Source: a virus | Virus record (IMG/VR): IMGVR_UViG_3300030108_001617 | Location: 1 to 47,263 of that record | Direction: 5' to 3' (one strand) | DNA length: 47,263 nt | Shown: in pieces, positions 6,874 through 33,368 of the stretch | Layout: each line of letters begins with the position of its first letter | Position numbering within the stretch: the stretch's first letter is position 1 | Translations under genes and position numbers: made by a program | Notes under the pieces: model-generated | The model's input: the letters and a program-made list of their open reading frames with translations, nothing else | What the model was told of the DNA's origin: nothing | Database searches by the model: none

Positions 6874-6884
6874 GGGAGAATAAC

Positions 6885-7205
6885 ATGAGTTGGGAACAAG
6901 TAGTTAAAAAATTAGGTAACTGTTATCAATCTGCTTATTCTTATATTTTTGATAAGGCTATGAAAGGAAATGAAAATTTAATTCTTGTTCACGCAGATGT
7001 GATTGGAACAGGTAAAGATGTCAAAGGTGTATGTTATGGACATGCGTTTGTTTTAGATGGTAACATGGTTAGAGATACAGAAGCAAAAGCCGATATACCT
7101 TATCAATTATATAAGGCATTAGGACAAATAACAAATGAAAAAAGATATACTTTTGAGGAAATGTTACAAGAGGCAAGCAAGTCTGGACATTATGGGCCTT
7201 GGTGA
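6885..7205 (+). CDS. Tagged Cys/His/Asp protein, papain-like fold suspected, 106 aa
   Basis: Starts MSWEQVVKKLGNCYQSAY. C13 (GNCY), H53 (CYGHAFVLDG) and D64 (MVRDTE) line up as a Cys-His-Asp set in the order used by papain-like/NlpC-type thiol hydrolases. The pattern GNCY ... LVHADV ... GHAFV ... V-x-D ... GPW matches a small phage and mobile-element family that I recall, without an established function. The Cys immediately follows the tag. Possible roles are a peptidase, amidase or deamidase acting on a host target. Catalysis is inferred from residue order only. Confidence 0.7.
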   Translation: MSWEQVVKKLGNCYQSAYSYIFDKAMKGNENLILVHADVIGTGKDVKGVCYGHAFVLDGNMVRDTEAKADIPYQLYKALGQITNEKRYTFEEMLQEASKSGHYGPW

Positions 7206-13357: not shown

Positions 13358-14979
13358 TGGCAGAAGGAAATGTGTTTACAAGGTTGTTTAGAAAAAGAAC
13401 ACCTATACCTAGTGATAGAAAAGTTTTCAATATTGGAATACAAGAAAGAGACAATTCTTTTTTCTTGTCTATACCATTATTATATCACATTGCAAACTCA
13501 TCTGTCATTTGTAGAACTTGTACTACACAATTAAAGAATGAAGTATTTAGAAGAGGTTTTACTTTTGCTAAAAAATTTACCATGAAGTGTAGACAATGTG
13601 AGAAAGAGTTTGAGAAAGAACTTGGAGAATGCCCTAAATGTGGTTCAATGGAATTCGATGTTCCAGACGAAGAGCAATTGAAATATGCTAAGAAATTGTT
13701 AACAGGTTATGTCAATGGTGCAAACCAAATGTTTGTTGATGTGCTAAGAGAGTTAGAAGATGACTTAAATATTATAGATGATGCATACATCGTGTTAGTT
13801 AAAGAATACTTTTGTGATTCTAAAGGGAATATTAAGTTACACAGGATAAAAGAGGTATTTAGAGGAGACCCTGCATCTATGACTATCTATGCGGACGAAG
13901 TTGGTGAAAGAGGGCAAAAAGGATTTATTGATATTCAAAATAGAGATTTTATTTCTGAAAATGCATACGATACTCATCCCGAATCTGGTAATGTTTTACA
14001 ACCAGTGCATTACGTTAACAGGGCTACTGGAGAAGAAGAATATTTCATTGAAGGTGAGGTTTTACATTTTAGTAAATATGCTCCTTCAAGATTATATGGT
14101 TCAAGTCCTGTTTTAACATTGTTTAGTCACTTAACTACATTGATAGCAATGGAAAATTATGTTAATGCATCTTATACTAAATCTAGAATGCCTAGAGGTA
14201 TTCTTGCAGTCCAAACTAGAAACATGGATTCTATGAGGCAATTTTGGAGAAGCGTCAAAGAAAAGATGGAAAGTGACCCACATTTTATTCCAGTTATGGG
14301 AATTGAAGCAGAAGGTAAAGGTTCAGTAGAGTGGGTCAAGTTTATGGATAGTCTAAAAGAAATGGACTATGTTGCAGTCAAAGAAGATTTAAGAGATAGA
14401 GTTGCTGCTTTCTATGGGGTTAGTAAAATATTCATGGCAGATAATACGGCTAGTGGTGGATTAAATAATGAAGGTATGCAAATCCTTGTAACTAATCGTG
14501 CAGTAGAAATGGCTCAGAATGTTTACAATCAATATGTGTTCCCTTGGCTAATGGAAGAATTTGGAGTTACAGATTGGGAATTAATATTGCCACCATCAGA
14601 AGAAGAAGATGAAATAGCCAAATTAAGAAAAAGAGAAATCGAAATCGGTCTTGCTTCTCAAATGCAAGGTTTAGGATTTGAAGTTGATTTAGATGATGAA
14701 AACAATTTTGTTTACAGTAAACCCCCACCCCCACCAGAACCAGAGGCAAAAATGGAAGGAGACGTGATGTTAGGTGATACTGCTATGGGAGAACCTGCTA
14801 TGGCAGATGTTCCTATGGAGGAAATTCCTATGGAGGAACAAGTTGAAGAAGTTGAAGAAACTCCGACAGATACACCCGATGTCCGTATGAGTGTGGGGCC
14901 ACCGCAAAGATTCAGTGGTTTACCTCAAGAGGCAGCGAACAATAATGTCGATAGAAGAACAGAGAGGCGAGTAGGATGA
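13354..14979 (+). CDS. Portal protein with zinc-knuckle insertion, 541 aa
   Basis: Forms the dodecameric DNA entry ring of the head. The portal core is recognisable from LHFSKYAPSRLYGSSPVLTL, the helix after it, and RVAAFYGVSKIFMADNTASG (about 348-367), typical of HK97/SPP1-type portals. Near the N-terminus are three C-x2-C pairs (C53/C56, C79/C82, C93/C96, the last as CPKCG) that should hold zinc, an addition uncommon in bacterial phage portals. The C-terminus is Pro/Met/Glu-rich repeats (EPAMADVPMEEIPMEEQ), probably disordered. Start ATG 13354 or 13357, with GGAGATGAAGA upstream. Confidence 0.9.
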   Translation: MMAEGNVFTRLFRKRTPIPSDRKVFNIGIQERDNSFFLSIPLLYHIANSSVICRTCTTQLKNEVFRRGFTFAKKFTMKCRQCEKEFEKELGECPKCGSMEFDVPDEEQLKYAKKLLTGYVNGANQMFVDVLRELEDDLNIIDDAYIVLVKEYFCDSKGNIKLHRIKEVFRGDPASMTIYADEVGERGQKGFIDIQNRDFISENAYDTHPESGNVLQPVHYVNRATGEEEYFIEGEVLHFSKYAPSRLYGSSPVLTLFSHLTTLIAMENYVNASYTKSRMPRGILAVQTRNMDSMRQFWRSVKEKMESDPHFIPVMGIEAEGKGSVEWVKFMDSLKEMDYVAVKEDLRDRVAAFYGVSKIFMADNTASGGLNNEGMQILVTNRAVEMAQNVYNQYVFPWLMEEFGVTDWELILPPSEEEDEIAKLRKREIEIGLASQMQGLGFEVDLDDENNFVYSKPPPPPEPEAKMEGDVMLGDTAMGEPAMADVPMEEIPMEEQVEEVEETPTDTPDVRMSVGPPQRFSGLPQEAANNNVDRRTERRVG

Positions 14980-15221
14980 GTTGGGAAAGTATAATTAAAC
15001 TTAGATTCAGAGATTTCAAATCAGAGGCTTATAAAAAATACAATTCTCAAATAGAATTACTTAATGAAACTATAAGTAAATTAGAAGATGAAGTAAAAAC
15101 CTATGTAGAAGGAGATGCTGAAAAATTTGAGCAATTCATGGATGAGATAAATGCGGATTTAAAAAAAGTATCTCAAAAAGTAATTAAAAAAGTAAATGAT
15201 GTAAGAACATATGACTGGTGA
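14976..15221 (+). CDS. Tagged coiled-coil protein, 81 aa
   Basis: Starts MSWESIIKLRFRDFKSEAY at an ATGA overlap with the portal stop. Residues 25-75 form a coiled coil (LLNETISKLEDEVKTYV; FMDEINADLKKVSQKVIKKV). First tagged gene after the packaging block, which shows that the tag is not confined to the 5' cluster. Could be a small scaffold or portal-associated internal protein. No family recognised. Confidence 0.75.
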   Translation: MSWESIIKLRFRDFKSEAYKKYNSQIELLNETISKLEDEVKTYVEGDAEKFEQFMDEINADLKKVSQKVIKKVNDVRTYDW

Positions 15222-15226
15222 ATAAT

Positions 15227-15433
15227 ATGACAACAAGAGAAGAAGTAATAAAATTAAAAAAAGAATTAGCAAGAAAACAGGCTGCGTTAGCACACAGAGA
15301 TAGAAGAGTAGAAACACAAAGAGATTTTACCCCTAGTCAACCTAAAGCACTTAAAGAAAGAAAAATGCCTAACTCAGTGCCTCATGTAATACAATATAAG
15401 AAAACTCCTAAAAGGACAGAAAATAAGTGGTAA
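15227..15433 (+). CDS. Small basic protein, 68 aa
   Basis: Begins MTTREEVIKLKKELARKQAAL at ATG 15227, preceded by CTGGTGAATAAT. Helical N-terminal half, then an Arg/Pro/Lys-rich tail (DFTPSQPKALKERKMPN). No tag, no family recognised. Sits between two tagged genes. Confidence 0.65.
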   Translation: MTTREEVIKLKKELARKQAALAHRDRRVETQRDFTPSQPKALKERKMPNSVPHVIQYKKTPKRTENKW

Positions 15434-15435
15434 GT

Positions 15436-17181
15436 GTGAATTGGCAATCTATTCTTAAGGCTAAACCTAGTTGGTTTGATAAAAAAAGTGTAGATGAATT
15501 TACTGACGATGAAAAAAAAGATTTTTATAGAATTCGTGATTCATTTGAAGAAGATTCAAATGTTGAATCAACGAAAGAAGAAAAAAAATATTTTGAAGAA
15601 TGGCGTGAAAAAATCCTTTCCCGATATAGGATAGGGACACCAGAAGAAAGAGAAGAAAGAAGAAGGGCTGCGGAAAGAGAATCTAGGCGAACAAGACGAG
15701 ATGAGGCATTAGCAAGAGTAAAAAGAACAAAAGAGCCAGAAATACTGGAAGAATTACTTGAAGAAAAACCAGAAGATTATTCAAAGAAAAGAAAAGGGTA
15801 TATTACATTAAAAGAATCCATAATAAATAATATCGAAGATTTAGGGCCGACAGATAAACCACGTTATTTTAAATTAGATGATAGTGGTAATTTATTATTT
15901 ATGAGTAAAAAAAAGGGAAGAAGAGACACTGAAAAACCGTTGCCCGAAGGTTTAGATTATTATATTGTCCCAGAAAGAATGAAAAATGTAAACATATATC
16001 ATTTAGCAAGTTTAGATAATAATTTCAAAAATACTATTGAAGAAATAGGAAAACAAAAATTTGGCCCTGCGTTATATGGTATGATGTTAGGAACAAAAAA
16101 AGTAGTAGATGAATCTGAATATTCCGAATTGATACGGAATTTTTTTAACGATGATAAATATTCAACATATAATTATATCAAATTTCGTGAAGGTTTAAAA
16201 TTGTTGGACAAAGCATATCGGTTGTATAAGCAAAATATTCCTAAAGAAGAATGGAAACCAGTTGAACTTCAAAAAATTGCTAATGAAATAAAGGCTAATA
16301 AAATAAAAAATATGTTACCTGTTCTTAAGATTTTAGAAAAACACATAGCAAACAATCCTAATTATAGAATCAAAGAGACTAGTGACCGCCAAGTTAAAAC
16401 GTTTAGAGAGTTTTACAATGAACTTAGACAATTTAAAAAAATCTATAGTGAATCTTTTGATAGGGTATTAGATGATTTAACAGGAAAAAAAGGTTTTAAT
16501 CTTGGGGAACAGTGGGACAAGGCATATAAATTAAAAAATAAAAGAATAGTAGAGGGTTATTCAAAACTTAATTTAAGTAAAAGAGAGCAAGATATTGCTT
16601 TAACTTTACATAAAGAAATAGAAAGAGCAATTAAAAAAGATTTAGATTTAACAAAAGAAGAAGTTGAAAAAATTATTAAAGACAATATTGATAATTTAAA
16701 AGAAGAAGATTTGTCTCGTAATTTTATTAAAATTTTAAAAGGTCAACTTTACAAATTGATTGGTGCATTAAAGAACGTAGAGGGAATAGATAATTTAAAA
16801 ACAATTGTTGATTCTTTTGAGGTATCTAGTCGTGAGTTTACTTATGATGTCAAAAAAGCACTCAATCCAAAATTAGCATCTTTACCAGAAGAACCAATAA
16901 AACGATTAAAGAAAACATTACAAGCAGCAGAACCTTCTGAGTATTTTGGACAAGATTATACTAGGCTAGGAGAGTTGATAGATTTACTTCAAGAAATGGA
17001 TTTTACCAAAGGAGATACAGAGTTAAATGAGAAGATAAAGTCCATCAGTGAGCAAAACATAGATATGGTGGCTACTGCTGCGAGGTTACGTAAGACTTAT
17101 GAAACATTGTACTTACAGGTTAGAAAGATAGTGTACCCTAAAGCCAGCGAAGGTAGTTTAAGAGAGGAGGAAGAAGTATGA
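15436..17181 (+). CDS. Large tagged helical protein, about 581 aa
   Basis: GTG 15436 gives MNWQSILKAKPSWFDKK, restoring the exact M-x-W-x-x-I-L-K spacing; GTG 15427 would put three residues in front. I choose 15436 because the upstream AAGTGGT is better spaced and because of the tag. The body is long, charged and mostly helical: Glu/Arg-rich coiled stretch at 60-125, helical repeats at 190-480 (KKDLDLTKEEVEKIIKDNID) and an acidic C-terminus. No catalytic motif seen. Possibly a large internal head protein or scaffold component, inferred from position between portal and protease. Confidence 0.75.
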   Translation: MNWQSILKAKPSWFDKKSVDEFTDDEKKDFYRIRDSFEEDSNVESTKEEKKYFEEWREKILSRYRIGTPEEREERRRAAERESRRTRRDEALARVKRTKEPEILEELLEEKPEDYSKKRKGYITLKESIINNIEDLGPTDKPRYFKLDDSGNLLFMSKKKGRRDTEKPLPEGLDYYIVPERMKNVNIYHLASLDNNFKNTIEEIGKQKFGPALYGMMLGTKKVVDESEYSELIRNFFNDDKYSTYNYIKFREGLKLLDKAYRLYKQNIPKEEWKPVELQKIANEIKANKIKNMLPVLKILEKHIANNPNYRIKETSDRQVKTFREFYNELRQFKKIYSESFDRVLDDLTGKKGFNLGEQWDKAYKLKNKRIVEGYSKLNLSKREQDIALTLHKEIERAIKKDLDLTKEEVEKIIKDNIDNLKEEDLSRNFIKILKGQLYKLIGALKNVEGIDNLKTIVDSFEVSSREFTYDVKKALNPKLASLPEEPIKRLKKTLQAAEPSEYFGQDYTRLGELIDLLQEMDFTKGDTELNEKIKSISEQNIDMVATAARLRKTYETLYLQVRKIVYPKASEGSLREEEEV

Positions 17182-17438
17182 CATGGGAAGATATAGTAAA
17201 AGGGCCAGCAGATGTAAAATTAATAAATAATTACATAATGTTCATAAATAATACAAATGCGTTTGAAAAAATAGAAATTCTTTTTGGTCAACCTTATGAT
17301 GAGATGGAAGGCCATAGAAAATCATATGTTAAAAAATTCATGGATGTTCATACTGATGTAGTTAGATTATGGGGTATGCTTGACCTTGAAAACAGACAAA
17401 AGTTAGTAGATGCGGCAATCGACAAATACGGTAGGTAA
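17178..17438 (+). CDS. Tagged helical protein, 86 aa
   Basis: Starts MTWEDIVKGPADVKL; its eight-residue tag is identical to that of the first tagged gene at 159 although they are 17 kb apart and unlike afterwards. AGGAGGAAGAAGT lies upstream. The body is a compact helical domain (INNYIMFINNTNAFEKIEIL; MDVHTDVVRLWGMLDLENRQ). No family recognised. Confidence 0.8.
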   Translation: MTWEDIVKGPADVKLINNYIMFINNTNAFEKIEILFGQPYDEMEGHRKSYVKKFMDVHTDVVRLWGMLDLENRQKLVDAAIDKYGR

Positions 17439-18324: not shown

Positions 18325-20787
18325 GTGCCTCAATTACTTTTCCAAAAAGAAAGCGACCCTGCTAGATTAGTTCGCACCTTATTTGAAAAGGTTAGAATTG
18401 GTTACTTACTAGGAAAAGATGACCCTAAACATTATGCCGAGCGTTGGACATCTGTTATAGATGAACTAAAAGATTTACATGATGACACTAGCAACTTTGC
18501 AGCATTAATTAAAAGAACATTGAATGAAAAAGAATTGTTCTCAGACGAGGCTAAAAATCCAGAGTCACACGAAGCAGGTAGAATTTTTGCAGCAATTAAA
18601 AAACTACGCTATTCTAAAATTACTAAAGACCCGTTTATTGAAGAATTCGGAGAAGAAGTTGTTGACGCTCTTTTATCAGATGAACATGTTTATGTCAAAT
18701 TTTTGCACTGGGCATTAAGAAACGATGACGATGTTTTAGAACCAGAACTATATGAGAATCAAGATTTAGACCCCGATGAAATCACTGGTGGTTTTGCTGG
18801 ACTAGATTTAAAAGAAAAAGAAATTATTCCTTTTATTATAGAACATTATGGCGATGATAAAGATTTATCAAGATTAGAATCTAAATACAAAGGTGCTATT
18901 AACACACTAAATAGAATCATAGACAATAAAGAACAAATGAAAAATCTAGTAGATTTAGATTTAAAGAAAGCAGAAAAATCATTATCTTTTATTGTCCCTA
19001 ACAAACCAATGTATCGTATTTTTGAAATAGATGATTTACAAGAATTAAGAGGTTTTACTGGAAAGTGGGTAGTTCAAGAAAAATACGATGGGATGAGAAT
19101 ACAAATCCATAAATCAGCAGGAAATGTAAAAATATATTCTTTTAACAAAAAAGACATCACAGATAAATGTCCAGAACAAGTTAAGATGATGAGAGAGAAA
19201 AAATTTCCAGATTGTATTTTAGATGCTGAACTTATGTTATTTGATGGTGATACCCCTTTACATCGAGCAGAAGTAGTTGCTAAAATTTTCAAAAATAAAA
19301 AATCAGACACAATATTAAGAGCGCATGTATTTGACATCATGCAACATGACGATAAAGATTTAACAGATTCACCATTAGAAGAAAGAATCAAAGTATTGTT
19401 TCAAAACTTTAGTCAACATTCAGATATTGAATTAGCATTCCCATCCAAAAAAGATACGAGGATTGCAGACTCAATAAAAGACGTAGAACAATACTCTAAA
19501 GAAATATTCAAAATTCCAACAGCCGAAGGAGTTGTTTTGAAAGATTTAACTTCTACTTATTTCTTAGCCAATAGAAAAAATCCTAAATGGGTCAAGTGGA
19601 AAAAATTTGTAGATATTGACGTGATAGTATTAGGTATGAAGAAAACCAAATCAGATTTATTTTCTTATAGTGTAGGAGTAGGGCCAGTAGAAGAAGGTGT
19701 AGAAGTAAATGGTGTGAAATATCTAAATGTTGGTAAAGCCCTTAATACTAAAATTAGAGTAGATGTTGGAGATATTGTTAGAGTTAAAGTGGATGAGGTT
19801 AGGCAAACACCAGATGGTTTTGCTTTACAATCTGCTAAGGTTATAGAAGTTCCCGAAGTTGAACATCCAGACAAAGTAGTGACTTTAGAATTTTTAGCAA
19901 AAGATACTAAGAAATCTTTGAATTATAATATTGAAGCACTGACTAAAGGATATACGATAACTGACCATGTTCATGGGGAAGCCACTATTATTACTAAATC
20001 AGATATGGATGGTTTTACAATATATGGTTTCCAAGAAGACAATCTCATGGCTAAGAACGCTCTAGCGAACATGGAAGTTTGGAGAGAACAATTAGGTAAA
20101 GCACTTGATGAAGATAGGGCAGTTTTAGAAACAGCAATCATAAATGAAATTAAAAGAATTAATAGACCTATGGATATTAATGCAATTGTAAGGTTCTTTA
20201 ATAAAGATAAAGAACTAAAGAGAATATACGAAAGTGTATTTAACAGTAACAAAAATGAGTTGTTTAGAAGTCTTAAGAATAAATCACAAGACCACCTCAT
20301 ATATGAAAAACAAAAATTTGATTTGAACATGGAAACAGGAGAGCCATTGAGAAAAGAATATTCTACCCCAGAAGAATATAGAATGGGTACTTTTAAAGTG
20401 TATTTAACTAAAAATGAAAATATACAAATTATTATGAAATTAAGTGATGAAACTATTTCATGGATTATAGAGTTAGATACAGAAGATGATATATTCAATT
20501 TGTTTGGTAAATCTAAAAAGTTTAGAGCAGAGGTTGCTAGAACATTATCTAAAGAAAAACTAATTGATTCTGGGGAAGTTGAATTAGGAGTTCAAAGGCA
20601 TGGCTATCACGAATATATTCTCAATGGTAACAAATTCGATACTCGTTTACACTTTAGAGTAGTTCCAATAGATGGTAAAAAGAGTTGGGTAGCATTTACT
20701 AGTGTTAAACCAGAACGAGTTGATTCTAATACTGACGATGGAATATGGGATATAAGACAAGATAAACATAATAAATTAACCCTTTAA
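18325..20787 (+). CDS. ATP-dependent DNA ligase with N- and C-terminal extra domains, 820 aa
   Basis: Start GTG 18325, after GGTGATGTAAT. Nucleotidyltransferase motifs are intact: I, EKYDGMR with K253 as AMP-accepting lysine; III, DAELMLFDG (E302); IV, AEGVVLKDL (E401); V, KWVKWKKF (421-428). An OB-fold follows (about 430-510). This order is that of archaeal/eukaryal-type ligases, which seal nicks in DNA. The first 230 residues may be a DNA-binding domain. The C-terminal 300 residues are unusual: around 755-800 (GVQRHGYHEYILNGNKFD, then RLHFRVVPI) there is a segment that I recall fused to XkdF-type proteases in other phages. The gene sits between portal and protease, not in a replication module. 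Confidence 0.85.
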   Translation: MPQLLFQKESDPARLVRTLFEKVRIGYLLGKDDPKHYAERWTSVIDELKDLHDDTSNFAALIKRTLNEKELFSDEAKNPESHEAGRIFAAIKKLRYSKITKDPFIEEFGEEVVDALLSDEHVYVKFLHWALRNDDDVLEPELYENQDLDPDEITGGFAGLDLKEKEIIPFIIEHYGDDKDLSRLESKYKGAINTLNRIIDNKEQMKNLVDLDLKKAEKSLSFIVPNKPMYRIFEIDDLQELRGFTGKWVVQEKYDGMRIQIHKSAGNVKIYSFNKKDITDKCPEQVKMMREKKFPDCILDAELMLFDGDTPLHRAEVVAKIFKNKKSDTILRAHVFDIMQHDDKDLTDSPLEERIKVLFQNFSQHSDIELAFPSKKDTRIADSIKDVEQYSKEIFKIPTAEGVVLKDLTSTYFLANRKNPKWVKWKKFVDIDVIVLGMKKTKSDLFSYSVGVGPVEEGVEVNGVKYLNVGKALNTKIRVDVGDIVRVKVDEVRQTPDGFALQSAKVIEVPEVEHPDKVVTLEFLAKDTKKSLNYNIEALTKGYTITDHVHGEATIITKSDMDGFTIYGFQEDNLMAKNALANMEVWREQLGKALDEDRAVLETAIINEIKRINRPMDINAIVRFFNKDKELKRIYESVFNSNKNELFRSLKNKSQDHLIYEKQKFDLNMETGEPLRKEYSTPEEYRMGTFKVYLTKNENIQIIMKLSDETISWIIELDTEDDIFNLFGKSKKFRAEVARTLSKEKLIDSGEVELGVQRHGYHEYILNGNKFDTRLHFRVVPIDGKKSWVAFTSVKPERVDSNTDDGIWDIRQDKHNKLTL

Positions 20788-22128: not shown

Positions 22129-23562
22129 ATGGTAAGAACAATAAACACAATAAGAGATTTAGAAGCGGCTACATACGGCTTCCAAAACAACTCAATTCTA
22201 AAAGGTACTGGAGTAGTTGGTGCAGCAGGAATTGGTGTAACTGGACACGATGCAGCAATAGGAATAAACGGAACAGCATCTCCAGCAATGACTGATTTAT
22301 ACAATGTAGTATATGGTCAAAAAGTTTGGTCAATGTTGAACCAAGAAATAAACCCACTAGCAATTCTTCCAAAAAGACCGTACACAACAAGCGGTTGGAG
22401 AATTCTAAAAGCAAGACCATTTGGTGGAGCAGATGCAAAATTCGGTTTAGCACATGAATTTTCTGACAACTCTACTGGTGATGCTTTAACAGCAGGTAGA
22501 AGTGGAACACAAGTTGACAGGCCAATGCCAGATGAAATTGGTGGTGTTAGGGAAAATGCAGGAATAGGTGGAGCAGCATCAGACGGTGATTTGACACCAG
22601 TTGCACCAGAATACACAAAACTATTCATGACTCCTAAAACAATTGCTCACATGTTTGAATTCAGTGAATTAGCATCTGAAATGGCAAAGATTGATGATGG
22701 TATCGGTGACTTAAGAGCATTGATTCGTGAAGATATGGGTAAATTCCATGCAGAAGTTCAATCAAAAATGTTAGTAATGCCTCTAGAAGCATATGACTTA
22801 GATGCTGGATTAGCAGCAGGTAGTTCCGCTAACGGTACTGTTGCATTCACAGATATGGAAAGAAACTTAACATCATTGATGAAAATCGTTTCTTCCTCAG
22901 CAGAAGTTCATGAAATGGGTGCGCAACATTTAGTAGCAGCAGCAGATGGTGCTAACAGTGTAGACACAGTTAAACTATATGGTAACACAGATAGAGCAGC
23001 AGACACAGCATTAGGTTCCTCAGTAGGATTTATGGATGCAGTAGTTAATCTTGGAGATGGATATGCAGCAGCAGAACAAAGAGTATTAACACTTTCAATA
23101 ATGAACAATTTAATTCAAACACTAAGAACAAATGGAGCAAGTCCTAAAGTTATTATGACTGGATATGATACAATTCAAGCAATTGCTGACTTATTGCAAA
23201 GCCAAGAAAGATTCATGGATGCTAAACACATTGTACCAACACATAATGGTGTAAAAGGTGTTGCTGGTGCAGAAGTTGGATTCAGAGTTGCAACATACTA
23301 TGACATCCCACTAATTCCAGCAAAAGACATGCCAAGCACATGCCACTTATCATTATCAACAGGATTAAGTGATATGTTATTCTTAGACACTGACCACTTA
23401 TGGTACTCCGTACTAAAACCAACTCAATACTTTGAAGATGGTATCAATCATGGAAACCCATTCGGCATTGGTAAACTAGGGAATCAAGGAATGTACCGAA
23501 CTATTGGTGAAGTAGGCTGTTCTTTCTTCAAAGGACAAGGTAAAATCACCAACCTAAAGTAA
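22129..23562 (+). CDS. Major capsid protein, HK97 fold, 477 aa
   Basis: ATG 22129 follows GGTGATTAAA, directly after the protease-scaffold. Length and order are right for an HK97-type shell protein. The N-terminus (TINTIRDLEAATYGF) is followed by a Gly/Ala-rich linker, an E-loop-like region (SGWRILKARPFGGADAKF), a spine-helix segment (MGKFHAEVQSKMLVMP) and the A-domain (VIMTGYDTIQAIADLL). SILKGTG at residues 22-28 could be a processing site if ILK is a protease signal, though that is speculative. Ala/Gly-rich composition is typical of capsid proteins. Confidence 0.85.
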   Translation: MVRTINTIRDLEAATYGFQNNSILKGTGVVGAAGIGVTGHDAAIGINGTASPAMTDLYNVVYGQKVWSMLNQEINPLAILPKRPYTTSGWRILKARPFGGADAKFGLAHEFSDNSTGDALTAGRSGTQVDRPMPDEIGGVRENAGIGGAASDGDLTPVAPEYTKLFMTPKTIAHMFEFSELASEMAKIDDGIGDLRALIREDMGKFHAEVQSKMLVMPLEAYDLDAGLAAGSSANGTVAFTDMERNLTSLMKIVSSSAEVHEMGAQHLVAAADGANSVDTVKLYGNTDRAADTALGSSVGFMDAVVNLGDGYAAAEQRVLTLSIMNNLIQTLRTNGASPKVIMTGYDTIQAIADLLQSQERFMDAKHIVPTHNGVKGVAGAEVGFRVATYYDIPLIPAKDMPSTCHLSLSTGLSDMLFLDTDHLWYSVLKPTQYFEDGINHGNPFGIGKLGNQGMYRTIGEVGCSFFKGQGKITNLK

Positions 23563-23939: not shown

Positions 23940-24275
23940 TTGGTTAAAGTTACCAACTATAGTGGGCGAAGATTCAGAACTAGAAATATGACTCTGATGC
24001 CAGAAGAAACTAAATCCATAGATGTTGAAACAGGAATTCAACTCATGGGTTTATCTGGTGTCAAAGTCGCTTTTGAGGCTGGCGATAATTTATCCAACAT
24101 AAGCGAATATCGTTTAATAAAAGCAGCAAAGTTCGTAGGATTAACTGCCACATCTAAAGATGATGCAATCAAACAACTAGTACCTAAGAGAACAAGAAGC
24201 AAGCAATTAAAGTCAGTAGTGACTAAAGCAAAAGAAGCAGTATTACCTGCGGAAGAAGAAACTACTGAGGAATGA
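23940..24275 (+). CDS. Small head-associated protein, 111 aa, TTG start
   Basis: TTG 23940 after AAGGTGGT gives MVKVTNYSGRRFRTRNMTL. The N-terminal half is a small beta domain (LMPEETKSIDVETGIQLMGL). Then comes a helix-extended-helix-like stretch (LIKAAKFVGLTATSKDDAIK) and a charged C-terminus ending EEETTEE. GTG 23931 is the alternative start but lies inside the ribosome-binding site. Possibly a head-completion protein; uncertain. Confidence 0.65.
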   Translation: MVKVTNYSGRRFRTRNMTLMPEETKSIDVETGIQLMGLSGVKVAFEAGDNLSNISEYRLIKAAKFVGLTATSKDDAIKQLVPKRTRSKQLKSVVTKAKEAVLPAEEETTEE

Positions 24276-24277
24276 TT

Positions 24278-24571
24278 TTGTCTTGGGAAGATATACTCAA
24301 AGTAAGAGTTCCAGTAGGCAGAGCGCAAGGCTCTGATGAACGATTAGACATCTTTATGGATGTATCTAAAAGAATATTAGCAGGTGCTATGATTCTTGAT
24401 GCATTTGAAGATGCAGGTAAATCTGTAACAGTAGGGAAAGAATTGCTAATAAAGAATTTAGATTATACACCTCAAGAAATGAATACTGTCGAAAAGTTAT
24501 ATGATGATATGGCTGGTGGAAAATGGGGAGATACACTACTTAATGAAAGGTTTGAACAAGAAAATCTTTGA
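24278..24571 (+). CDS. Tagged helical protein, 97 aa, TTG start
   Basis: With TTG 24278 the protein begins M-S-W-E-D-I-L-K-V-R-V-P, the consensus tag exactly. ATG 24272 would add two residues but overlaps the previous stop and sits in the ribosome-binding region GAGGAATGATT. The body is helical (DERLDIFMDVSKRILAGAMI; VGKELLIKNLDYTPQEMNTV). A tagged gene located downstream of the capsid gene. No family recognised. Confidence 0.75.
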   Translation: MSWEDILKVRVPVGRAQGSDERLDIFMDVSKRILAGAMILDAFEDAGKSVTVGKELLIKNLDYTPQEMNTVEKLYDDMAGGKWGDTLLNERFEQENL

Positions 24572-24620: not shown

Positions 24621-24896
24621 ATGCCAGCATGTAGAAGTAGTGGAAAATTAACAGCAGATACTTTAGTATTAACAGGTAGTGCTAGAGTTGCTAGTTTCTT
24701 TGTACAAGAGTCTGCTGGCAGCACAGCAGAGATTGCAATATATGATAATACTGCGGCAAGTGGTGCTGAAATAGCAAGAGTAGGGTTAACTTCTGGTGAC
24801 AAGATAGACATAGATTTACATGGCGTTATGGTTACTAATGGTATTTACTTCAAAAAAGTTAGTGGAGCAGTTAATATGTTCATTAACTTTTACTGA
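24621..24896 (+). CDS. Small beta-sandwich-like protein, 91 aa
   Basis: MPACRSSGKLTADTLVLTGS, then strands AEIAIYDNTAASGAEIARVG and GIYFKKVSGAVNMFINFY. The alternating beta pattern and final F-K-K-V-S-G-x-x-x-x-x-F-x-N-F-Y resemble small virion surface proteins I recall from marine phages. GAGGAG precedes the ATG. It is preceded by a 49-nt gap, with only an AT-rich TATTATTAATA as a weak promoter candidate. Decoration protein is the best guess. Confidence 0.65.
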   Translation: MPACRSSGKLTADTLVLTGSARVASFFVQESAGSTAEIAIYDNTAASGAEIARVGLTSGDKIDIDLHGVMVTNGIYFKKVSGAVNMFINFY

Positions 24897-24908: not shown

Positions 24909-25298
24909 ATGGCAGCAATGGACAAAGACACAAGGCTTGTAATGACGATATTGTTTGTAGGAGCGGTATCTGGAACGAATGTATATTTTTATAGTGCGTA
25001 TGGTGCAGAATTACCATTTACAAATTTTGCACACGCAGTACTATTTGGGTTTTTAACAGTTGGAGGAATCATGGGATTAAAAGCATGTTTTGATTTAGCA
25101 GTTAATGATAGAATGGAACTATGGTTATTAGACCGTAAGATTAAAGTTTATTGGGAAAAGAAACAAAGAGAAACCCAACAAAAACAAAAGATTAGAGAGT
25201 CTATGAATAATTATGGAGTAAACTATGTACCTCCACAAAAACAAGTCAATCAAGATAATGAGGTTCCAAACACATTCCTAGCATCAATAGAGCAGTAG
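24909..25298 (+). CDS. Two-helix membrane protein, 129 aa
   Basis: ATG 24909 after GAGAGGTGTATAAG. Two hydrophobic segments, residues about 10-29 (LVMTILFVGAVSGTNVYFY) and 39-60 (NFAHAVLFGFLTVGGIMGLK), flank a short loop. The remaining 70 residues are a charged, Gln-rich cytoplasmic-type tail (YWEKKQRETQQKQKIRESM). First gene of an apparent membrane module. No family recognised; holin-like function is possible from the topology but the long tail and the GTPase neighbour argue for something else. Confidence 0.7.
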   Translation: MAAMDKDTRLVMTILFVGAVSGTNVYFYSAYGAELPFTNFAHAVLFGFLTVGGIMGLKACFDLAVNDRMELWLLDRKIKVYWEKKQRETQQKQKIRESMNNYGVNYVPPQKQVNQDNEVPNTFLASIEQ

Positions 25299-25307
25299 GT
25301 GTGTTAG

Positions 25308-25514
25308 ATGCCTTTTCTCCCATCAATTACTGGCAACGAACAAGTAGCCTATGATATGAGTAGGGCGCATTCTGCTGATTTATTTTTTATCAAGATGAGA
25401 GCATGGTTTTGGGGAGTAACTGCCAGTGTTGCTACTTTCTTATTAGGTCATATGATTGGCGTACTTGGTATTAATTTATATGAAATGGTGTGGAGTTGGT
25501 TCGGTGGTCATTAA
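25308..25514 (+). CDS. Single-pass membrane protein, 68 aa
   Basis: MPFLPSITGNEQVAYDMSRA precedes one transmembrane segment at about 32-55 (AWFWGVTASVATFLLGHMIG) and an aromatic end MVWSWFGGH. Stop and next start overlap as TAATG, so translation is coupled to the GTPase gene. Probably a membrane partner of the GTPase. Confidence 0.7.
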   Translation: MPFLPSITGNEQVAYDMSRAHSADLFFIKMRAWFWGVTASVATFLLGHMIGVLGINLYEMVWSWFGGH

Positions 25515-26179
25515 TGTCATTGATGGCTGGATTTGCTGTAGTTGCTGCTGATATTGCTTTAGGAATATATCATAAATTAAACACTATACCTTTTGGTGTA
25601 TATGGTGCTACAAGAGTTGGTAAAACAACATTACACAATCAATTAAGAACAAGAGGCGAAGTTGCTGATATTAAAAAGAGAACAGTTGGTTTACAAAGAG
25701 CCACTAGAAAATCTGTTAAGATAGATGGTGATGCTAGAACTTTAAAAACTGCCGATATAGGTGGGGAATCAAAGTATTGGGATTTATGGAAAAAAGATAT
25801 GAAAGAAAGAAAAGTAGATTATATTATTTTCATGATTGATGATAGACATTTAGAACAAACTTACAATTTAGAAAACCAATTGGCTTGGTCTTATCTTGTA
25901 GATTTAGTTTGTGACGATTACTGGTATATAGGCAAAAAACGTAAAAAGAAAAAACAATTCCCCAAAGCAGTAGGTTTGTGGGCAAACAAATATGATAAGT
26001 GGGGGAAAAAACATAATCATGAAGGGCCAATAGAAGACCACCCTATATTTCAGTCATTTAAATACGGTATGCAGCGATTACATGATAAAGGAATACCTAC
26101 TCACAAGTACATCGTGAGCGCAAAGTCCGACCCAGAAATGGTATATCGTGGAGTAATGACAATGATAAAAGACTATTGA
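25514..26179 (+). CDS. Membrane-anchored Arf/Ras-like small GTPase, 221 aa
   Basis: ATG 25514 gives an N-terminal transmembrane helix (MSLMAGFAVVAADIALGIY) followed by a complete small-GTPase domain: G1 GATRVGKT (31-38), G2 T57 in KRTVG, G3 DIGGES (81-86), G4 NKYD (158-161) and G5 SAK (202-204). The DxGG form of G3 is that of Arf-, SRbeta- and Gtr-like GTPases. It lacks the usual Gln after DxGG (Glu at 85), so hydrolysis may depend on a partner. A Lys-rich insert (KKRKKKKQF) precedes G4. It would bind GTP on the cytoplasmic face of a membrane. Embedded among virion genes, it is unlikely to be a routine tail or head component. Role unknown. Confidence 0.85.
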   Translation: MSLMAGFAVVAADIALGIYHKLNTIPFGVYGATRVGKTTLHNQLRTRGEVADIKKRTVGLQRATRKSVKIDGDARTLKTADIGGESKYWDLWKKDMKERKVDYIIFMIDDRHLEQTYNLENQLAWSYLVDLVCDDYWYIGKKRKKKKQFPKAVGLWANKYDKWGKKHNHEGPIEDHPIFQSFKYGMQRLHDKGIPTHKYIVSAKSDPEMVYRGVMTMIKDY

Positions 26180-26180
26180 G

Positions 26181-26828
26181 ATGATGAAAATGATGCAGGG
26201 AAATTATAATGCAGGATTGATTGGAGGAAGTACACAACATAATCCATTTGACAAACCTAGCAAAATCGCAAGATTAGCAGGGCCGATGATGGAATACAGA
26301 TTTGAAAATACAGCCCCCAAAAAAAAATTAAAAGAATTGAGAAAAGTTTTGTTACCAGAAAAAAGAAAATTTTTGTTTCTTAAGTTTGGTTATAAATACA
26401 ACATTCGTAATAGATGTTTAGTGTGTGGTTCGTTCCACGAATGGGATGCATCTGACCCATTAAGGGCTGGTATCATATTATCAGAAGTAACCAAGGGAAG
26501 ACCGCTTCAAGGAACTTATTGCCCTAGACACGCTAACATGTATAAACAATTTGAAATGCTTCAAGATGAAGTTTTGGCTGACAAACATGGTTTAGAATTT
26601 AAAAGATATATTCCTAAGCCGAGAATCCCAATGCTATCACAAGGGCCACTGACCGACTTAAATCAAGCACAAGTTTCAAGTCTAATAGCAGCAGGGTGGT
26701 TAATAGAGCCGCCAAAAGGTACGAGGGAGATTCCGAAAGAACAATACGTTAGATTAATGTCGGAGATACAAGGCAAACTAAAACAAATAGAAAATTTAGT
26801 AGGAGTGATAGACAATGGTGAGGAGTAG
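26181..26828 (+). CDS. Zinc-knuckle protein of the GTPase module, 215 aa
   Basis: Starts MMKMMQGNYNAGLIGG (ATG 26181 or 26190). Central metal site: C-x2-C in RCLVCGSFHEWDASD and a second half TYCPRHANMYKQF. A Lys-rich helix lies before it (KKKLKELRKVLLPEKRKF) and a predicted helical end after (YVRLMSEIQGKLKQIENLVG). No family recognised. It overlaps the next gene by 14 nt and may act together with the GTPase. Confidence 0.65.
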   Translation: MMKMMQGNYNAGLIGGSTQHNPFDKPSKIARLAGPMMEYRFENTAPKKKLKELRKVLLPEKRKFLFLKFGYKYNIRNRCLVCGSFHEWDASDPLRAGIILSEVTKGRPLQGTYCPRHANMYKQFEMLQDEVLADKHGLEFKRYIPKPRIPMLSQGPLTDLNQAQVSSLIAAGWLIEPPKGTREIPKEQYVRLMSEIQGKLKQIENLVGVIDNGEE

Positions 26829-27504
26829 TACATTAAATACAGCATTACAAGGTCAACAGACAAATACCTTCAAAGCAATGAATAATTTATTAACATTGCA
26901 AGACAATCATGTAGAAGAATTTTTGCAATATCATGGCCATGAGTTTTTTTTAGGCATTGAGAAATTTTTAGAGGATATTGTAGAAAGAGTCATGAGTGAA
27001 ATGTTATCTAAAATAGAATTTACAGTAGATAATGCAAGTGGCACAATGAGGCTAAATGAATATTGTCTAAAGGAATATGAACGGATTACACAAGAAAATA
27101 TCGAACTAGATATTCAAGCCATCCTTGCCGCTTCTCTAAACATGGAAGTAGTAAACCAAAGAAGGTTAGCAAAAAACAGTTATTTAGAATCTCAAGGATT
27201 TAACCCACAAAGTCCTGCCTCGCCAGCAGGTCAAGGTATGCCCGCAAATAACGGGATGATGCAAGGCCAAATAAATGGTCAACCGATGGGTGGACAAATC
27301 AATCAGCAATTGGCTATGCAACAAAACAACCAATCTGGTTATCCTGTACCACCAGCAGGTTATGATAACTATGGTAATCCATACTGGTTAGACCCTAACA
27401 CTGGACAGGTATCATATACTGCCCCATCTAGTGGATTAGGTATTGGTCGTGCGGCTATGCAAGGAATTGGTAAAGCGGCTGCATGGGCCAAGTGGTTAGC
27501 ATGA
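26815..27504 (+). CDS. Protein with Gln/Asn-rich linker and WW-like patch, 229 aa
   Basis: The first 120 residues form a helical domain (NHVEEFLQYHGHEFFLGIEK; FLEDIVERVMSEMLSKI). A Gln/Gly/Asn/Pro-rich linker (about 125-165) leads to a segment at 166-191 (GYDNYGNPYWLDPNTGQVSY) that looks like a WW or OCRE-type aromatic motif. A small amphipathic tail follows (GIGRAAMQGIGKAAAWAKWL). Such motifs usually bind Pro-rich peptides. The Pro/Gln-rich protein at 32430 is a candidate partner. Start ATG 26815, with GGAGTGATAGAC upstream. Confidence 0.65.
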   Translation: MVRSSTLNTALQGQQTNTFKAMNNLLTLQDNHVEEFLQYHGHEFFLGIEKFLEDIVERVMSEMLSKIEFTVDNASGTMRLNEYCLKEYERITQENIELDIQAILAASLNMEVVNQRRLAKNSYLESQGFNPQSPASPAGQGMPANNGMMQGQINGQPMGGQINQQLAMQQNNQSGYPVPPAGYDNYGNPYWLDPNTGQVSYTAPSSGLGIGRAAMQGIGKAAAWAKWLA

Positions 27505-28637
27505 GTGATACAAAAATCAAAATGCCTTTTCCCGACAAAGGGGATTTTGCTGAAAGTAATTTAAATGTGGATGATATTAAAGAACATCTTTTAGATTGGC
27601 TCATAGGATGTTATGACAAGGGAGAAATTATTTGCAATTTATTACCTGCTTATATGGCTGACATTGAAGAAAGATTTTCAGAAAAAGAAAATCCTAATTT
27701 AGAACGAACCAAAGAATATCTAAAAGAAGCGTTTACAAAATTAGAAAATGAAAGAATAGATACAGCAGTGCAAAAAAGAACTGAATCAAATGAGGATGGT
27801 AAAAAGAAATTAAATTTAGATATTAATTTTGTAGACGAGGCATTAAAGGATTGGACATTTAAAAATATAAATACTCCAAAGTCAGAATTCACAGGTCTTA
27901 GGACTCGATTAACAGAAACGTTCTTAGAAAGAACACCTATGGATTTTAGAATAAAACGAGAAGAAAGCCTATGGAGAAAAATGGAATATCAAAATTCTAA
28001 TGTACAATTTAAAGACAATATTTTTTCTTATACTGCGTTACCAGAACCATCTACTAAAACATTTTTACAGGAACAATTAGAAGAAATGCTAGGTAAAGAA
28101 TTCCCTATAAAGTGGGGTAGAAGTTATAAAGAACCACAAGAATTAGCATCTGTTAAATTTGATAGTAGAAAAGGATTTGCAAAAAAAATAAAAGAGCAAT
28201 TGCAAGGTGAAGATAGTAAGGCAAAAAAACGAAAAATTTTAGAGGCTTTTTTTGATGGTGTTGATTGGTTTAATGAATTAGAAGATAAGTTTTGGAAGGA
28301 TAAAGTTGGCACTGTAAGTAATTCTGATTACTTATTAAACCCGTTCATAATTTTTACTTATGATATAAAAATAGAAATTAAAGAAAATGACTTATTAGGT
28401 AAAGCAACAATCAAAGCAATTCCTCTAGAAGAATTAGTAACTTACCAGCCAACTAGAGGAGAAACAAGAAGAGAGCCTACTATAGAAGAATTGCTTTCTC
28501 CAGATAAACCTTCTTCGTTAGATAATGTGGGGAGAGATATAAAAACTGATGATTTACAAATCAAAAATGATTTGTGGAAACATTTAAAAAATAATATGGA
28601 ATCATTAAAGCGATACATTGAGGAGGCCACTGCATGA
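27501..28637 (+). CDS. Unknown structural-region protein, 378 aa
   Basis: Starts MSDTKIKMPFPDKGDF at an ATGA overlap. The N-terminal half is charged and helical (YLKEAFTKLENERIDTAVQK). The C-terminal half is mixed alpha/beta with DGVDWFNELEDKFWKDKVG, then a strand-rich FIIFTYDIKIEIKENDLLGK. No motif recognised. Position between the membrane module and the connector suggests a head-tail joining or membrane-module role, which is weak inference. Confidence 0.7.
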   Translation: MSDTKIKMPFPDKGDFAESNLNVDDIKEHLLDWLIGCYDKGEIICNLLPAYMADIEERFSEKENPNLERTKEYLKEAFTKLENERIDTAVQKRTESNEDGKKKLNLDINFVDEALKDWTFKNINTPKSEFTGLRTRLTETFLERTPMDFRIKREESLWRKMEYQNSNVQFKDNIFSYTALPEPSTKTFLQEQLEEMLGKEFPIKWGRSYKEPQELASVKFDSRKGFAKKIKEQLQGEDSKAKKRKILEAFFDGVDWFNELEDKFWKDKVGTVSNSDYLLNPFIIFTYDIKIEIKENDLLGKATIKAIPLEELVTYQPTRGETRREPTIEELLSPDKPSSLDNVGRDIKTDDLQIKNDLWKHLKNNMESLKRYIEEATA

Positions 28638-29752
28638 AATACATATCACCATCTGATAGGACAGCAATAGCCCCTAATTATAATAATGGAGATGGCTATT
28701 ATACAACAGATACTCTCATAGCAGCAATGTTACAAATACCTGCTTTCAGTTCTTCAACTAATCCTACCTCAGCAGAAGTAGGTACGATAATAAGAAATGT
28801 AGAAGATAGGATAGATAGTATCACAGGAACATCTTGGCGACCTATAATTTATAGAGATGAGTACCACAACTTTTCATTCACAAGCAATGTAGTTGCAATA
28901 CCTACTGATTTTGTAGATTATGTAGGGTTTGTTCAGTTAGATAATCCACATATTCGTAAACTCATAAGATTAGAAATCTATCAAGGAAATAATTATTTAG
29001 ATTTAGCATCTGCTACAGCCACAGTTAACTTTGATGATTTTACTGCTATCCAAAGTAATACAACACAAATCAATCTTAAATTACCTAACAGTGGTTTAGT
29101 GTTTAATCTATTAGCAGGAACTACAGATTCTAGATTTGACTCAACTTATGGTAATCAAACTGCGGCAGAAGAACTTGTAGCACTAATCAATGAAACATTC
29201 CCTGCTAACACATCTACACTAACTGGTGCAACTCAAGCAAAAGCACAAACTGATAGTACAGGTGCTAAACAAGTGTCAGACTTTTTCTATGCAACACTAG
29301 ATTCTGAAAATAATAACAAGGTAATAATATCATCTCTATTGCCTAGTGATGATGGGGCTAATTGTTCAATTTATCTTAATGGTAGTTCATCTACACTAAA
29401 CGCACATGGTATAACAGTTACAGGCTTTACAGATAAAGAAGAGTTGGGAAGATTAAGTAACTTCTGGACAATAGGACATGAAGGAAGAATCTTCTTTAGA
29501 AAACAATTCCCATATTCATTATCTAATTCAATAAGGGCAACTTATATCGCAGGTAATCAAAGAGTGCCAGCAAGTATTGCAGAAGCCGCAACAAAATTAG
29601 CGTGTTGTGAAATATTGCGTCATGATGATTCAACAGTGTTGATTGGTGAAAGTGGTAATCAAATAACTCCTAGAGAGAAATATGATTTATTAACTTTAGA
29701 AGCAAATGAAACATTGAATGCATACAAGAGTACGGTGGTGTTGGTAGATTGA
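28634..29752 (+). CDS. Head-tail connector (adaptor) with beta insertion, 372 aa
   Basis: The N-terminal helical part (IIRNVEDRIDSITGTSW) and the C-terminal helices (VPASIAEAATKLACCEILRH; NQITPREKYDLLTLEANETL) are those of gp6/gp15-like adaptors that bind under the portal. The length (372 aa) exceeds the usual 100-200. The extra residues, about 100-285, are a beta-rich, Thr/Asn/Ser-rich domain (LPNSGLVFNLLAGTTDSRFD) inserted between the helical halves. Coupled to the next gene by a 4-nt overlap. Confidence 0.7.
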   Translation: MKYISPSDRTAIAPNYNNGDGYYTTDTLIAAMLQIPAFSSSTNPTSAEVGTIIRNVEDRIDSITGTSWRPIIYRDEYHNFSFTSNVVAIPTDFVDYVGFVQLDNPHIRKLIRLEIYQGNNYLDLASATATVNFDDFTAIQSNTTQINLKLPNSGLVFNLLAGTTDSRFDSTYGNQTAAEELVALINETFPANTSTLTGATQAKAQTDSTGAKQVSDFFYATLDSENNNKVIISSLLPSDDGANCSIYLNGSSSTLNAHGITVTGFTDKEELGRLSNFWTIGHEGRIFFRKQFPYSLSNSIRATYIAGNQRVPASIAEAATKLACCEILRHDDSTVLIGESGNQITPREKYDLLTLEANETLNAYKSTVVLVD

Positions 29753-32287: not shown

Positions 32288-32437
32288 ATGGAAAAATCAA
32301 TAGATGCATATCCTTATCGTAGAGAAGCGAAAAATAAACTAGAGGCATTAGAGGCTAAGAAAAATCCTCCTAAGCCAAAGAAACAACGCAAGTCTAGAAA
32401 GAAAAAAGAAGAAACAGTAGTTGAAGAAAATGAGTGA
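32288..32437 (+). CDS. Small Lys-rich protein, 49 aa
   Basis: ATG 32288 follows GGGTGATTAAA. Sequence begins MEKSIDAYPYRREAKNKLEA and ends in a Lys/Arg/Pro-rich stretch and acidic tail (KKKEETVVEENE). Overlaps the next gene by 8 nt. Function unknown; could be a short tail-associated helper. Confidence 0.6.
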   Translation: MEKSIDAYPYRREAKNKLEALEAKKNPPKPKKQRKSRKKKEETVVEENE

Positions 32438-33368
32438 ATGGTTTGATATTCTTAAGCAACAAGGTACGTTGGACGTAGGGCTTCCACCTGCTCAACCAGC
32501 CAATCCTCAAACTCGAAGACCACCGACAGCAGAAGAGCGGCAACAGTATCAGCAACGGCGGCGGCGACTAAACAGAAGACAAGGCCCACCGACAGCAGCA
32601 GAGAGACAACGAATGCAACAACGGCAACGTCAAGGAAAGCCCACACCACAACAAGCAGTACAAGGAATGGCAGGTACAATGACTGTCGATTTATCACCAG
32701 AACAAGGTAATCGACTTCACGCTCAAGCAAAAGAAAACCCACACCCTCAATTTAGAAATTTAAGTAGAGAAGAAGTAACATACCTTCAACAATCTGGTAT
32801 GACTCCAGCACAAATTAGGAATATAAATAATCAAGCCTCATCTCAAAATCAAGTAGCATTCGGTGCAGCAGGACAAAGTTTAGGAAGACGGGCAGCAGCA
32901 GGAGCAGGTAAATTAGCATTAAGAGGGGCAAAAGGTGTTTTAGGTGGTGTGGGTGCTGCGGCAGGAGGAATCAAACAAAGATTAGGGCAAATGGTAACAC
33001 CTAGTCCCAATCAACCAAGAGGCGCACAAGCAAATGTCCCATCACCTACTGAAGTAAATTTGGCTGCTCGACCAGACCCACAAGTTATTCAAAATTTAAA
33101 AAATCAGATACAACAAATGAAAGCGGAAGTTGCTGGTAATCCTGCTGCACGACCAAGACTTGAAGCATTAGAAGCACAATTACAAGCAGAACAAAACAAA
33201 GGTAAACTACATGGTAGAGAGATTATACGACCAGTAGCAGGTAGACCACCAGCAGGAACAAGAACAGGCCCACCACCAAGACGTCCTTTTTCTGCTCAAC
33301 CAACCAGTATTCAAACAATAGCCAAATCAGAATGGTTCAATGTATTATATTCACACCAAACAATGTAA
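32430..33368 (+). CDS. Pro/Gln/Arg-rich protein with tag-like motif at both ends, 312 aa
   Basis: Starts MSEWFDILKQQGTLD and ends AKSEWFNVLYSHQTM, so SEWF-(D/N)-(I/V)-L occurs at both termini. The interior is low complexity: Arg/Gln/Pro repeats (PPTAEERQQYQQRRRRLN; PPTAAERQRMQQRQRQ), a Gly/Ala hydrophobic helix (about 155-185: GAGKLALRGAKGVLGGVGAA) and Pro-rich linkers. Only this protein has a double-ended motif. It sits between tail tube and tail chaperone, so a role bridging head cargo and tail components is possible, unproven. Confidence 0.7.
   Translation: MSEWFDILKQQGTLDVGLPPAQPANPQTRRPPTAEERQQYQQRRRRLNRRQGPPTAAERQRMQQRQRQGKPTPQQAVQGMAGTMTVDLSPEQGNRLHAQAKENPHPQFRNLSREEVTYLQQSGMTPAQIRNINNQASSQNQVAFGAAGQSLGRRAAAGAGKLALRGAKGVLGGVGAAAGGIKQRLGQMVTPSPNQPRGAQANVPSPTEVNLAARPDPQVIQNLKNQIQQMKAEVAGNPAARPRLEALEAQLQAEQNKGKLHGREIIRPVAGRPPAGTRTGPPPRRPFSAQPTSIQTIAKSEWFNVLYSHQTM

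What the first reader, a model, noticed from the sequence alone, without database searches (positions are those of the whole stretch)
25514..26179. Virus-encoded membrane-anchored Arf/Ras-like GTPase with all five G motifs
G1 GATRVGKT, G2 Thr, G3 DIGG, G4 NKYD and G5 SAK are in order and spaced as in small GTPases, behind an N-terminal transmembrane helix. I know of no routine small-GTPase gene in the structural module of tailed viruses. It is flanked by coupled membrane proteins. Possible roles: membrane remodelling during assembly or exit, a switch at entry, or interference with host surface polarity. The Glu in place of the usual catalytic Gln after DxGG suggests a need for an activating partner.
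Basis: partly seen in the sequence, partly recalled or inferred. Interest (0 to 1): 0.9.

Follow-up and report, generated by a model that had tools for sequence, protein, structure and literature searches.

The report
Membrane GTPase cassette in marine archaeal viruses
A group of abundant ocean viruses that very probably infect archaea carries, inside its capsid-gene operon, a Ras/Arf-type molecular switch anchored in the membrane, kept with four partner genes and more conserved than the capsid protein, which suggests the virus runs its own GTP-driven membrane step late in infection.

Summary
The ORF at 25514-26179 (221 aa) encodes a genuine Ras-superfamily GTPase. Pfam MMR_HSR1 matches at 8e-7. 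The AlphaFold2 model (pTM 0.71) has full GTPase topology, and every one of the top 50 PDB fold matches shown is a G protein or a complex with one. G1-G5 residues are invariant in 81 relatives, behind a conserved hydrophobic N-terminal helix.

IMG/VR holds at least 334 relatives. The window looks like a magrovirus (Poseidoniales virus): MCP related to Druskaviridae, and Cpn60 and split PolB in 87-97 kb relatives. That assignment is inferred.

The GTPase belongs to a five-gene, tightly packed cassette (24912-27504): two membrane proteins, GTPase, a CxxC/CxxH protein and a helical protein. It is absent as a unit from sister viruses and haloviruses; the MCP tree needs one change (support 100/96). 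The GTPase is the most conserved protein measured there, ahead of the MCP.

Corrections: only upstream neighbours are membrane proteins; two loops are longer than in Ras/Arf; the Glu after DxGG is Gln in 16 of 81 relatives, so no special GAP need follows; Arf membership is not shown.

Most likely role (inferred, about 0.4): a GTP-switched complex at the host membrane for virion assembly or release.

The parts
25514..26179 (+). Small GTPase gene, 221 aa
   Evidence: motifs invariant in 81 relatives, Pfam MMR_HSR1 8e-7, GTPase fold
25517..25570 (+). Hydrophobic N-terminal helix (residues 2-19), membrane anchor, with conserved acidic residue 13
   Evidence: low hydrophobic moment, so transmembrane-like rather than Arf-like amphipathic
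25604..25630 (+). G1 / P-loop GATRVGKTT (residues 31-39)
   Evidence: G31, G36, K37, T38, T39 in 81/81
25679..25693 (+). G2 / switch I RTVGL with T57
   Evidence: T57 81/81, G59 79/81; aligned with Arl PTVGF
25754..25789 (+). G3 / switch II DIGGESKYWDLW (residues 81-92), E85 where Ras/Arf have Gln, W92 aligned with Arf-family Trp
   Evidence: D, GG, W89, W92 81/81; position 85 E65/Q16; alignment to Arl
25934..25957 (+). Lysine-rich extra loop between helix 3 and strand 5
   Evidence: 8-9 basic residues in the 26 before WANKYD in the members listed
25985..25996 (+). G4 NKYD
   Evidence: N, K, D 81/81
26117..26131 (+). G5 SAKSD
   Evidence: 81/81
24912..25298 (+). Cassette gene 1: protein with two hydrophobic segments and a charged tail
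   Evidence: 79/79 loci; hydropathy peaks; at least 332 relatives
25308..25514 (+). Cassette gene 2: 68-aa protein with one hydrophobic segment and motif RAHSAD; its stop overlaps the GTPase start (TAATG)
   Evidence: 79/79 loci
26181..26828 (+). Cassette gene 4: soluble protein with CxxC...CxxH, putative zinc site
   Evidence: 75/77 loci; C79, C82, C114, H117 conserved; at least 330 relatives
26815..27504 (+). Cassette gene 5: protein with conserved N-terminal half, Gly/Pro/Gln-rich linker and conserved C-terminal segment (AAWAKWL)
   Evidence: 70/71 loci, conserved segments; overlaps cassette gene 4
22129..23562 (+). Major capsid protein, HK97-type; anchors the locus in the head module
   Evidence: phrog_24667 1.9e-21; related to HVTV-1/HCTV-1 MCP
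24621..24896 (+). Small protein upstream of the cassette, also found in some viruses without it
27483..28637 (+). Fast-evolving large-ORF slot; sister viruses have a 790-1030 aa ORF here directly after the small protein
28634..29752 (+). Conserved gene after the cassette, connector-like by position; present in both clades
   Evidence: 58/58; homologous-looking ORF in sisters

Best explanation
Shown: this is a genuine Ras-superfamily GTPase with a hydrophobic N-terminal helix, encoded in the structural operon of a clade of marine tailed archaeal (magrovirus-like) viruses, as the most conserved member of a five-gene cassette that occurs as a unit. Inferred: the three hydrophobic proteins form a complex in the host cytoplasmic membrane, with the G domain held at its inner face by the helix and the lysine-rich loop. 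GTP loading switches the complex on; it then recruits or organises partners (the zinc-site protein and the helical protein) and deforms or marks the membrane so that late virions can be assembled there or released, in a way comparable to Arf or archaeal ArvA. The zinc-site protein could be a regulator of the GTPase, by analogy with ArvC only.
For: GTPase identity. Membrane helix and two adjacent hydrophobic proteins. Cassette as a unit: (334, 332 and 330 relatives found with three different genes; GTPase present in 74 of 80 and 78 of 80 loci anchored on the others, the 8 exceptions being loci that end near the anchor, or in L328 after inserted cargo genes). One change on the MCP tree, support 100/96. 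Strongest constraint of the proteins measured, median pairwise identity 65% against 61% for the MCP. Overlapping or abutting genes in the head operon. Known precedent for a small GTPase with a zinc-ribbon partner driving archaeal membrane budding: ArvA/B/C, PMC10927574. Review stating that no holin gene is known in isolated archaeal viruses and that egress of most is unknown: PMC4456609.
Against: No biochemical or localisation data. No sequence link to ArvB (DUF2073) or ArvC (DUF2072): Pfam scans of the neighbours gave nothing. The sister clade and haloviruses manage without the cassette, so it is not a universal egress or assembly tool. Position beside head genes fits assembly as well as release. 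Hydrophobic segments were called from hydropathy only. Late expression is inferred from gene position.
Confidence: 0.42

Rival explanations
1. Membrane-docked assembly platform: the GTPase complex tethers procapsids or packaging or head proteins to the host membrane and times a step of head maturation, with no role in membrane remodelling.
For: The cassette lies between MCP-side genes and the connector-like gene; it is conserved like structural genes; the helical protein with a disordered-looking linker could be an adaptor.
Against: Viruses with related MCPs and the same flanking genes lack the whole cassette, so head assembly as such does not need it.
Confidence: 0.28
2. Host-takeover or exclusion device: the GTPase mimics or titrates a host small GTPase pathway (vesiculation, division, surface polarity) or blocks superinfection at the membrane.
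For: Small GTPases such as ArvA control envelope processes in archaea (PMC10927574); accessory distribution.
Against: Position in the structural operon and tighter conservation than the MCP are unlike typical fast-evolving host-interference genes; no PADLOC match.
Confidence: 0.16
3. Virion component: the cassette products travel in the particle and act at entry, inserting in the membrane of the new host.
For: Located among structural genes; tailed viruses do inject proteins (general knowledge).
Against: None of the five carries the N-terminal WxxILK motif seen on 18 other window ORFs, which would be the obvious candidate sorting tag; three of the proteins have hydrophobic segments.
Confidence: 0.1
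4. Not a true GTPase: a degenerate or kinase-like P-loop protein.
For: Overall scores to GTPase families are modest and below several cut-offs.
Against: All five motifs invariant in 81 relatives, NKxD and SAK included; GTPase topology and fold matches.
Confidence: 0.04

Closest known systems
ArvA (OapA) archaeal vesiculating GTPase with ArvB and ArvC, Haloferax volcanii (PMC10927574)
   Same: Archaeal small GTPase scoring to both PF01926 and PF00025, hydrophobic residues on an N-terminal helix, operon with a zinc-binding partner, proposed membrane-deforming switch
   Different: Cellular, not viral; amphipathic rather than fully hydrophobic helix; partners DUF2073 and DUF2072 not detected here; direct sequence comparison and tree not done (no ArvA sequence at hand)
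Arf/Arl family of eukaryotes
   Same: GKTT P-loop, switch I TVG, DxGG followed by Trp at +11 (aligned to Arl), NKxD
   Different: No Gly2; longer G3-G4 and G4-G5 loops; SAK in G5; Glu mostly in place of Gln; Pfam Arf only at its threshold
SR-beta (signal recognition particle receptor beta)
   Same: N-terminal membrane helix directly before an Arf-like G domain
   Different: Pfam SRPRB 17.3 bits against a cut-off of 25; no SR-alpha-like domain among the cassette proteins
Rag/Gtr GTPases
   Same: Gtr1p-Gtr2p among fold matches (2.9e-6, best query TM score of the list, 0.57)
   Different: No Gtr1_RagA Pfam match; no C-terminal roadblock-like extension
Ras/Rab/Ran-like GTPases of giant viruses of eukaryotes
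   Same: Virus-encoded small GTPases; the BFVD fold matches
   Different: Viruses of eukaryotic hosts; here a conserved operon cassette in a tailed virus
Magroviruses (Magrovirales: Aoguangviridae, Apasviridae)
   Same: Relatives of 87-97 kb, Cpn60, PolB split as in the Aoguangviridae map legend, MCP kin to Druskaviridae
   Different: GTPase not mentioned in the two ICTV profiles read or in PMC10160649; the original genome papers could not be read

Membership tests
Ras-superfamily small GTPase | G1-G5 motifs in order | tested here: met
   Invariant in 81 sequences
Ras-superfamily small GTPase | Six-stranded G-domain fold | tested here: met
   AF2 strand/helix order and PDB fold matches 7e-7 to 5e-6; model mean pLDDT only 67, residues 34-63 below 50
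Ras-superfamily small GTPase | GTP binding and hydrolysis | not testable with these tools
   Needs protein
Arf family | Pfam PF00025 over curated cut-off | tested here: inconclusive
   22.0 against 22.3 for the 221-aa protein; 22.3 counted as over in the longer open frame
Arf family | Switch signature TIG/TVG and DxGG...W | tested here: met
   T57, W92 81/81, G59 79/81; aligned to Arl
Arf family | N-terminal amphipathic, Gly2-myristoylated helix | tested here: not met
   Residue 2 is Ser/Thr; helix hydrophobic on all faces, moment 0.19 against 0.27 for a typed-in Arf1 helix
SR-beta | PF09439 match over cut-off | tested here: not met
   17.3 bits against cut-off 25
Rag/Gtr | Gtr1_RagA domain match | tested here: not met
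   Not listed at E up to 1
ArvA system | ArvB (DUF2073) and ArvC (DUF2072) in the operon | tested here: not met
   No such Pfam match in neighbours or their relatives
ArvA system | GTPase groups with ArvA in a tree | not tested
Magrovirales | Replication module with PolB, and Cpn60, in about 90-kb relatives | tested here: met
   PolB in 18 of 18 relatives, split in most; Cpn60 in 16 of 18. The window itself is a fragment without these genes
Magrovirales | Poseidoniales host | not tested
   No host link obtained; inferred from virus kinship

The most novel reading that the evidence does not exclude
A tailed virus of archaea encodes its own Arf/ArvA-like GTP-driven membrane-remodelling machine, with dedicated membrane partners and a regulator, as the exit or assembly-site system of an abundant ocean virus group: a release mechanism unlike holin-endolysin or virus-associated pyramids.
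Probability: 0.3. Interest if true: 0.88.

Novelty: new variant of a known kind. Interest (0 to 1): 0.64.

Why it matters
In the material searched here, small GTPases that switch membranes turn up in cells and in giant viruses of eukaryotes; no counterpart was found in prokaryotic virus records. A GTPase conserved more tightly than the capsid protein, with a fixed set of membrane partners, gives a concrete candidate for the unknown way tailed archaeal viruses assemble at or leave the host membrane, and can be tested in a laboratory archaeon.

Tried and rejected
PHROGs, PADLOC and NCBIfam for function: nothing informative. tblastn of the GTPase against phage and plasmid records: no match. The only hits in genome assemblies were two contigs in a Maricaulis MAG, read as viral contamination. 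Named magrovirus genomes ON649702, OR863078 and PP497040 are not held, and the founding papers are not held. Archaeal GTPases for a tree could not be drawn. The zinc-site protein was modelled (mean pLDDT 64, pTM 0.46) but is too poor for a fold search. Considered and rejected: kinase or ATPase P-loop (NKxD and SAK kept); chance motif match (81 of 81 conservation); the idea that the cassette is needed for head building (absent in sister clade). The large ORF of sister viruses was tested as a replacement of the cassette: it corresponds by position to the variable ORF slot at 27483 (weak similarity 7e-4 for L010 against L222), so the cassette looks inserted rather than swapped.

Full report
OBSERVATION. 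The 221-aa ORF at 25514-26179 is present as described. It is tightly packed with its neighbours: the stop of the 68-aa membrane-type protein upstream overlaps its ATG (TAATG at 25512-25516), the next gene starts right after its stop, and the following one overlaps. Pfam gives MMR_HSR1 8.1e-7 (over cut-off), Arf 1.2e-4, Ras 1.9e-4, Roc 3e-4 and SRPRB 3e-3; 27 of 27 aligned relatives match MMR_HSR1. In an 81-sequence alignment every diagnostic residue of G1, G2, G3, G4 and G5 is invariant. An AlphaFold2 model from 27 sequences (mean pLDDT 67, pTM 0.71; residues 34-63, the P-loop end and switch I, are poorly modelled) has the strand/helix order of a G domain. Foldseek against PDB returns Rac, Rab, Ral, Ras, Arl, Gtr and G-alpha entries at about 1e-6 in the 50 rows shown (a few rows are named after a larger complex). 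Sequence profile search against PDB agrees but is weak (Ras 0.0016, Arl 0.004). This is not chance.

FINE STRUCTURE. Switch I (RTVGL) and switch II (DIGG-E-x6-W) align with Arl proteins, including Trp at +11. The residue after DxGG is Glu in 65 and Gln in 16 of 81. Papers conflict on Glu at this place in Ras: increased intrinsic activity (PMC10515638) or reduced hydrolysis (PMC6813200); no need for a partner can be read from it. Compared with Ras/Arf (numbering from memory) the G3-G4 interval is about 18 residues longer, containing a lysine-rich loop, and G4-G5 about 11-15 longer. The N-terminal helix is hydrophobic on all faces, with low moment, and has an acidic residue at position 13 in every relative, so it looks like a transmembrane or deeply inserted helix rather than the amphipathic helix of Arf or ArvA. 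An acidic residue inside such a helix suggests pairing with a partner; conserved His and Lys in the 24912 protein are candidates (inference).

WHAT VIRUS. The window's terminase, portal and MCP match tailed-virus families. The MCP is related to Druskaviridae (HVTV-1, HCTV-1). Relatives of 87-97 kb carry Cpn60 and a PolB that is split in most of them, as the map legend of Aoguangviridae lists (PMC10768690). The window is therefore most likely a magrovirus fragment; a Poseidoniales host is inferred, not shown.

CASSETTE. Across 80 relatives the genes at 24912, 25308, 25514, 26181 and 26815 are kept: 79/79, 79/79, 80/80, 75/77 and 70/71 of loci long enough. Independent scans of IMG/VR find at least 334, 332 and 330 relatives for the GTPase, the 24912 protein and the zinc-site protein. 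Loci anchored on the other two genes hold the GTPase in 74 of 80 and 78 of 80, always in the same order; the exceptions are loci that end near the anchor, and in one case (L328) after inserted genes. A scan by MCP (504 relatives; 80 kept) shows the five genes together or not at all apart from contig ends. On the MCP tree of loci with enough flank, 27 carriers and 45 non-carriers split by one branch, support 100/96; the nearest group consists of 25 non-carriers. Whole-record searches found no relative of the GTPase elsewhere in twelve non-carrier records, some of them fragments. In four sisters the small protein upstream is followed directly by a large ORF and the connector-like gene, so the cassette looks like an insertion, most simply gained once; loss in the sister line is not excluded. 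Over a common set of up to 15 viruses, median pairwise identity is GTPase 65%, MCP 61%, helical protein 58%, 24912 protein 55%, zinc-site protein 51% and connector-like protein 48%.

NEIGHBOURS. The 24912 protein has two hydrophobic segments and a charged tail; the 25308 protein has one, after a RAHSAD motif; the 26181 protein has conserved C79/C82 and C114/H117 and no hydrophobic segment; the 26815 protein has a Gly/Pro/Gln-rich linker and a conserved end. None matches a known family convincingly.

PRECEDENT. No PHROG for the window protein, no INPHARED hit, and the named BFVD fold hits are viruses of eukaryotes. Papers read on magroviruses do not mention a GTPase; a search for Poseidoniales + virus + GTPase found one review of Asgard archaea, which was not opened. 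The founding magrovirus genome papers and their tables could not be read, so an unnoticed GTPase label there cannot be excluded.

MECHANISM. Shown: real GTPase by sequence and fold, membrane-type helix, fixed cassette, strong constraint, head operon. Inferred: a late membrane complex switched by GTP. The closest working model is ArvA of Haloferax, where a small GTPase drives budding and loss of its zinc-ribbon partner ArvC increases vesicles (PMC10927574). The viral system resembles it in parts list but not by detected homology of partners. Release or assembly at the membrane is favoured over host interference because of operon position and constraint; the choice between release and assembly is open. 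The absence from sister viruses shows it is an optional solution. A review notes that no holin gene is known in isolated archaeal viruses and that most rely on an unknown exit route (PMC4456609), which is why this is worth testing.

Noticed in passing
window 150-7205, 14976-17438, 24272-24571, 32421-33368 (18 ORFs): 18 of 51 non-overlapping + strand ORFs start with a short motif M..W-x-x-[ILV]-[LIV]-K (as in MSWEDILK); 0.06 expected from internal frequency. The proteins look otherwise unalike; the motif could be a sorting or cleavage tag, for instance for packaging proteins into the capsid.
   Followed up: partly
L328 3111-3904; L027 6656-7707; L020 6669-7196; sister loci L207, L222, L249: Genes with the same WxxILK start are inserted at different points between conserved structural genes, even inside the GTPase cassette, as if they were exchangeable cargo genes.
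   Followed up: no
window 11960-13357: ORF overlapping the end of the terminase gene, with a LAGLIDADG-like stretch (AAFIDSDGYITL), a possible homing endonuclease.
   Followed up: no
window 18325-20787: 820-aa ORF with ATP-dependent DNA ligase-like motifs (EKYDGMRIQ) inside the structural module, before the MCP.
   Followed up: no
window 27483-28637 and equivalents (L063 8007-10592; L240 9527-12610): A very variable ORF slot of 350-1030 aa just upstream of the connector-like gene, in both clades.
   Followed up: partly
L084, L085: Two virus contigs with the GTPase are binned into a Maricaulis genome assembly, apparently contamination.
   Followed up: no
records behind the loci: PolB is split into two ORFs in most GTPase carriers and is one ORF in the three sister-clade records where it was found, a second character separating the two clades.
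   Followed up: no
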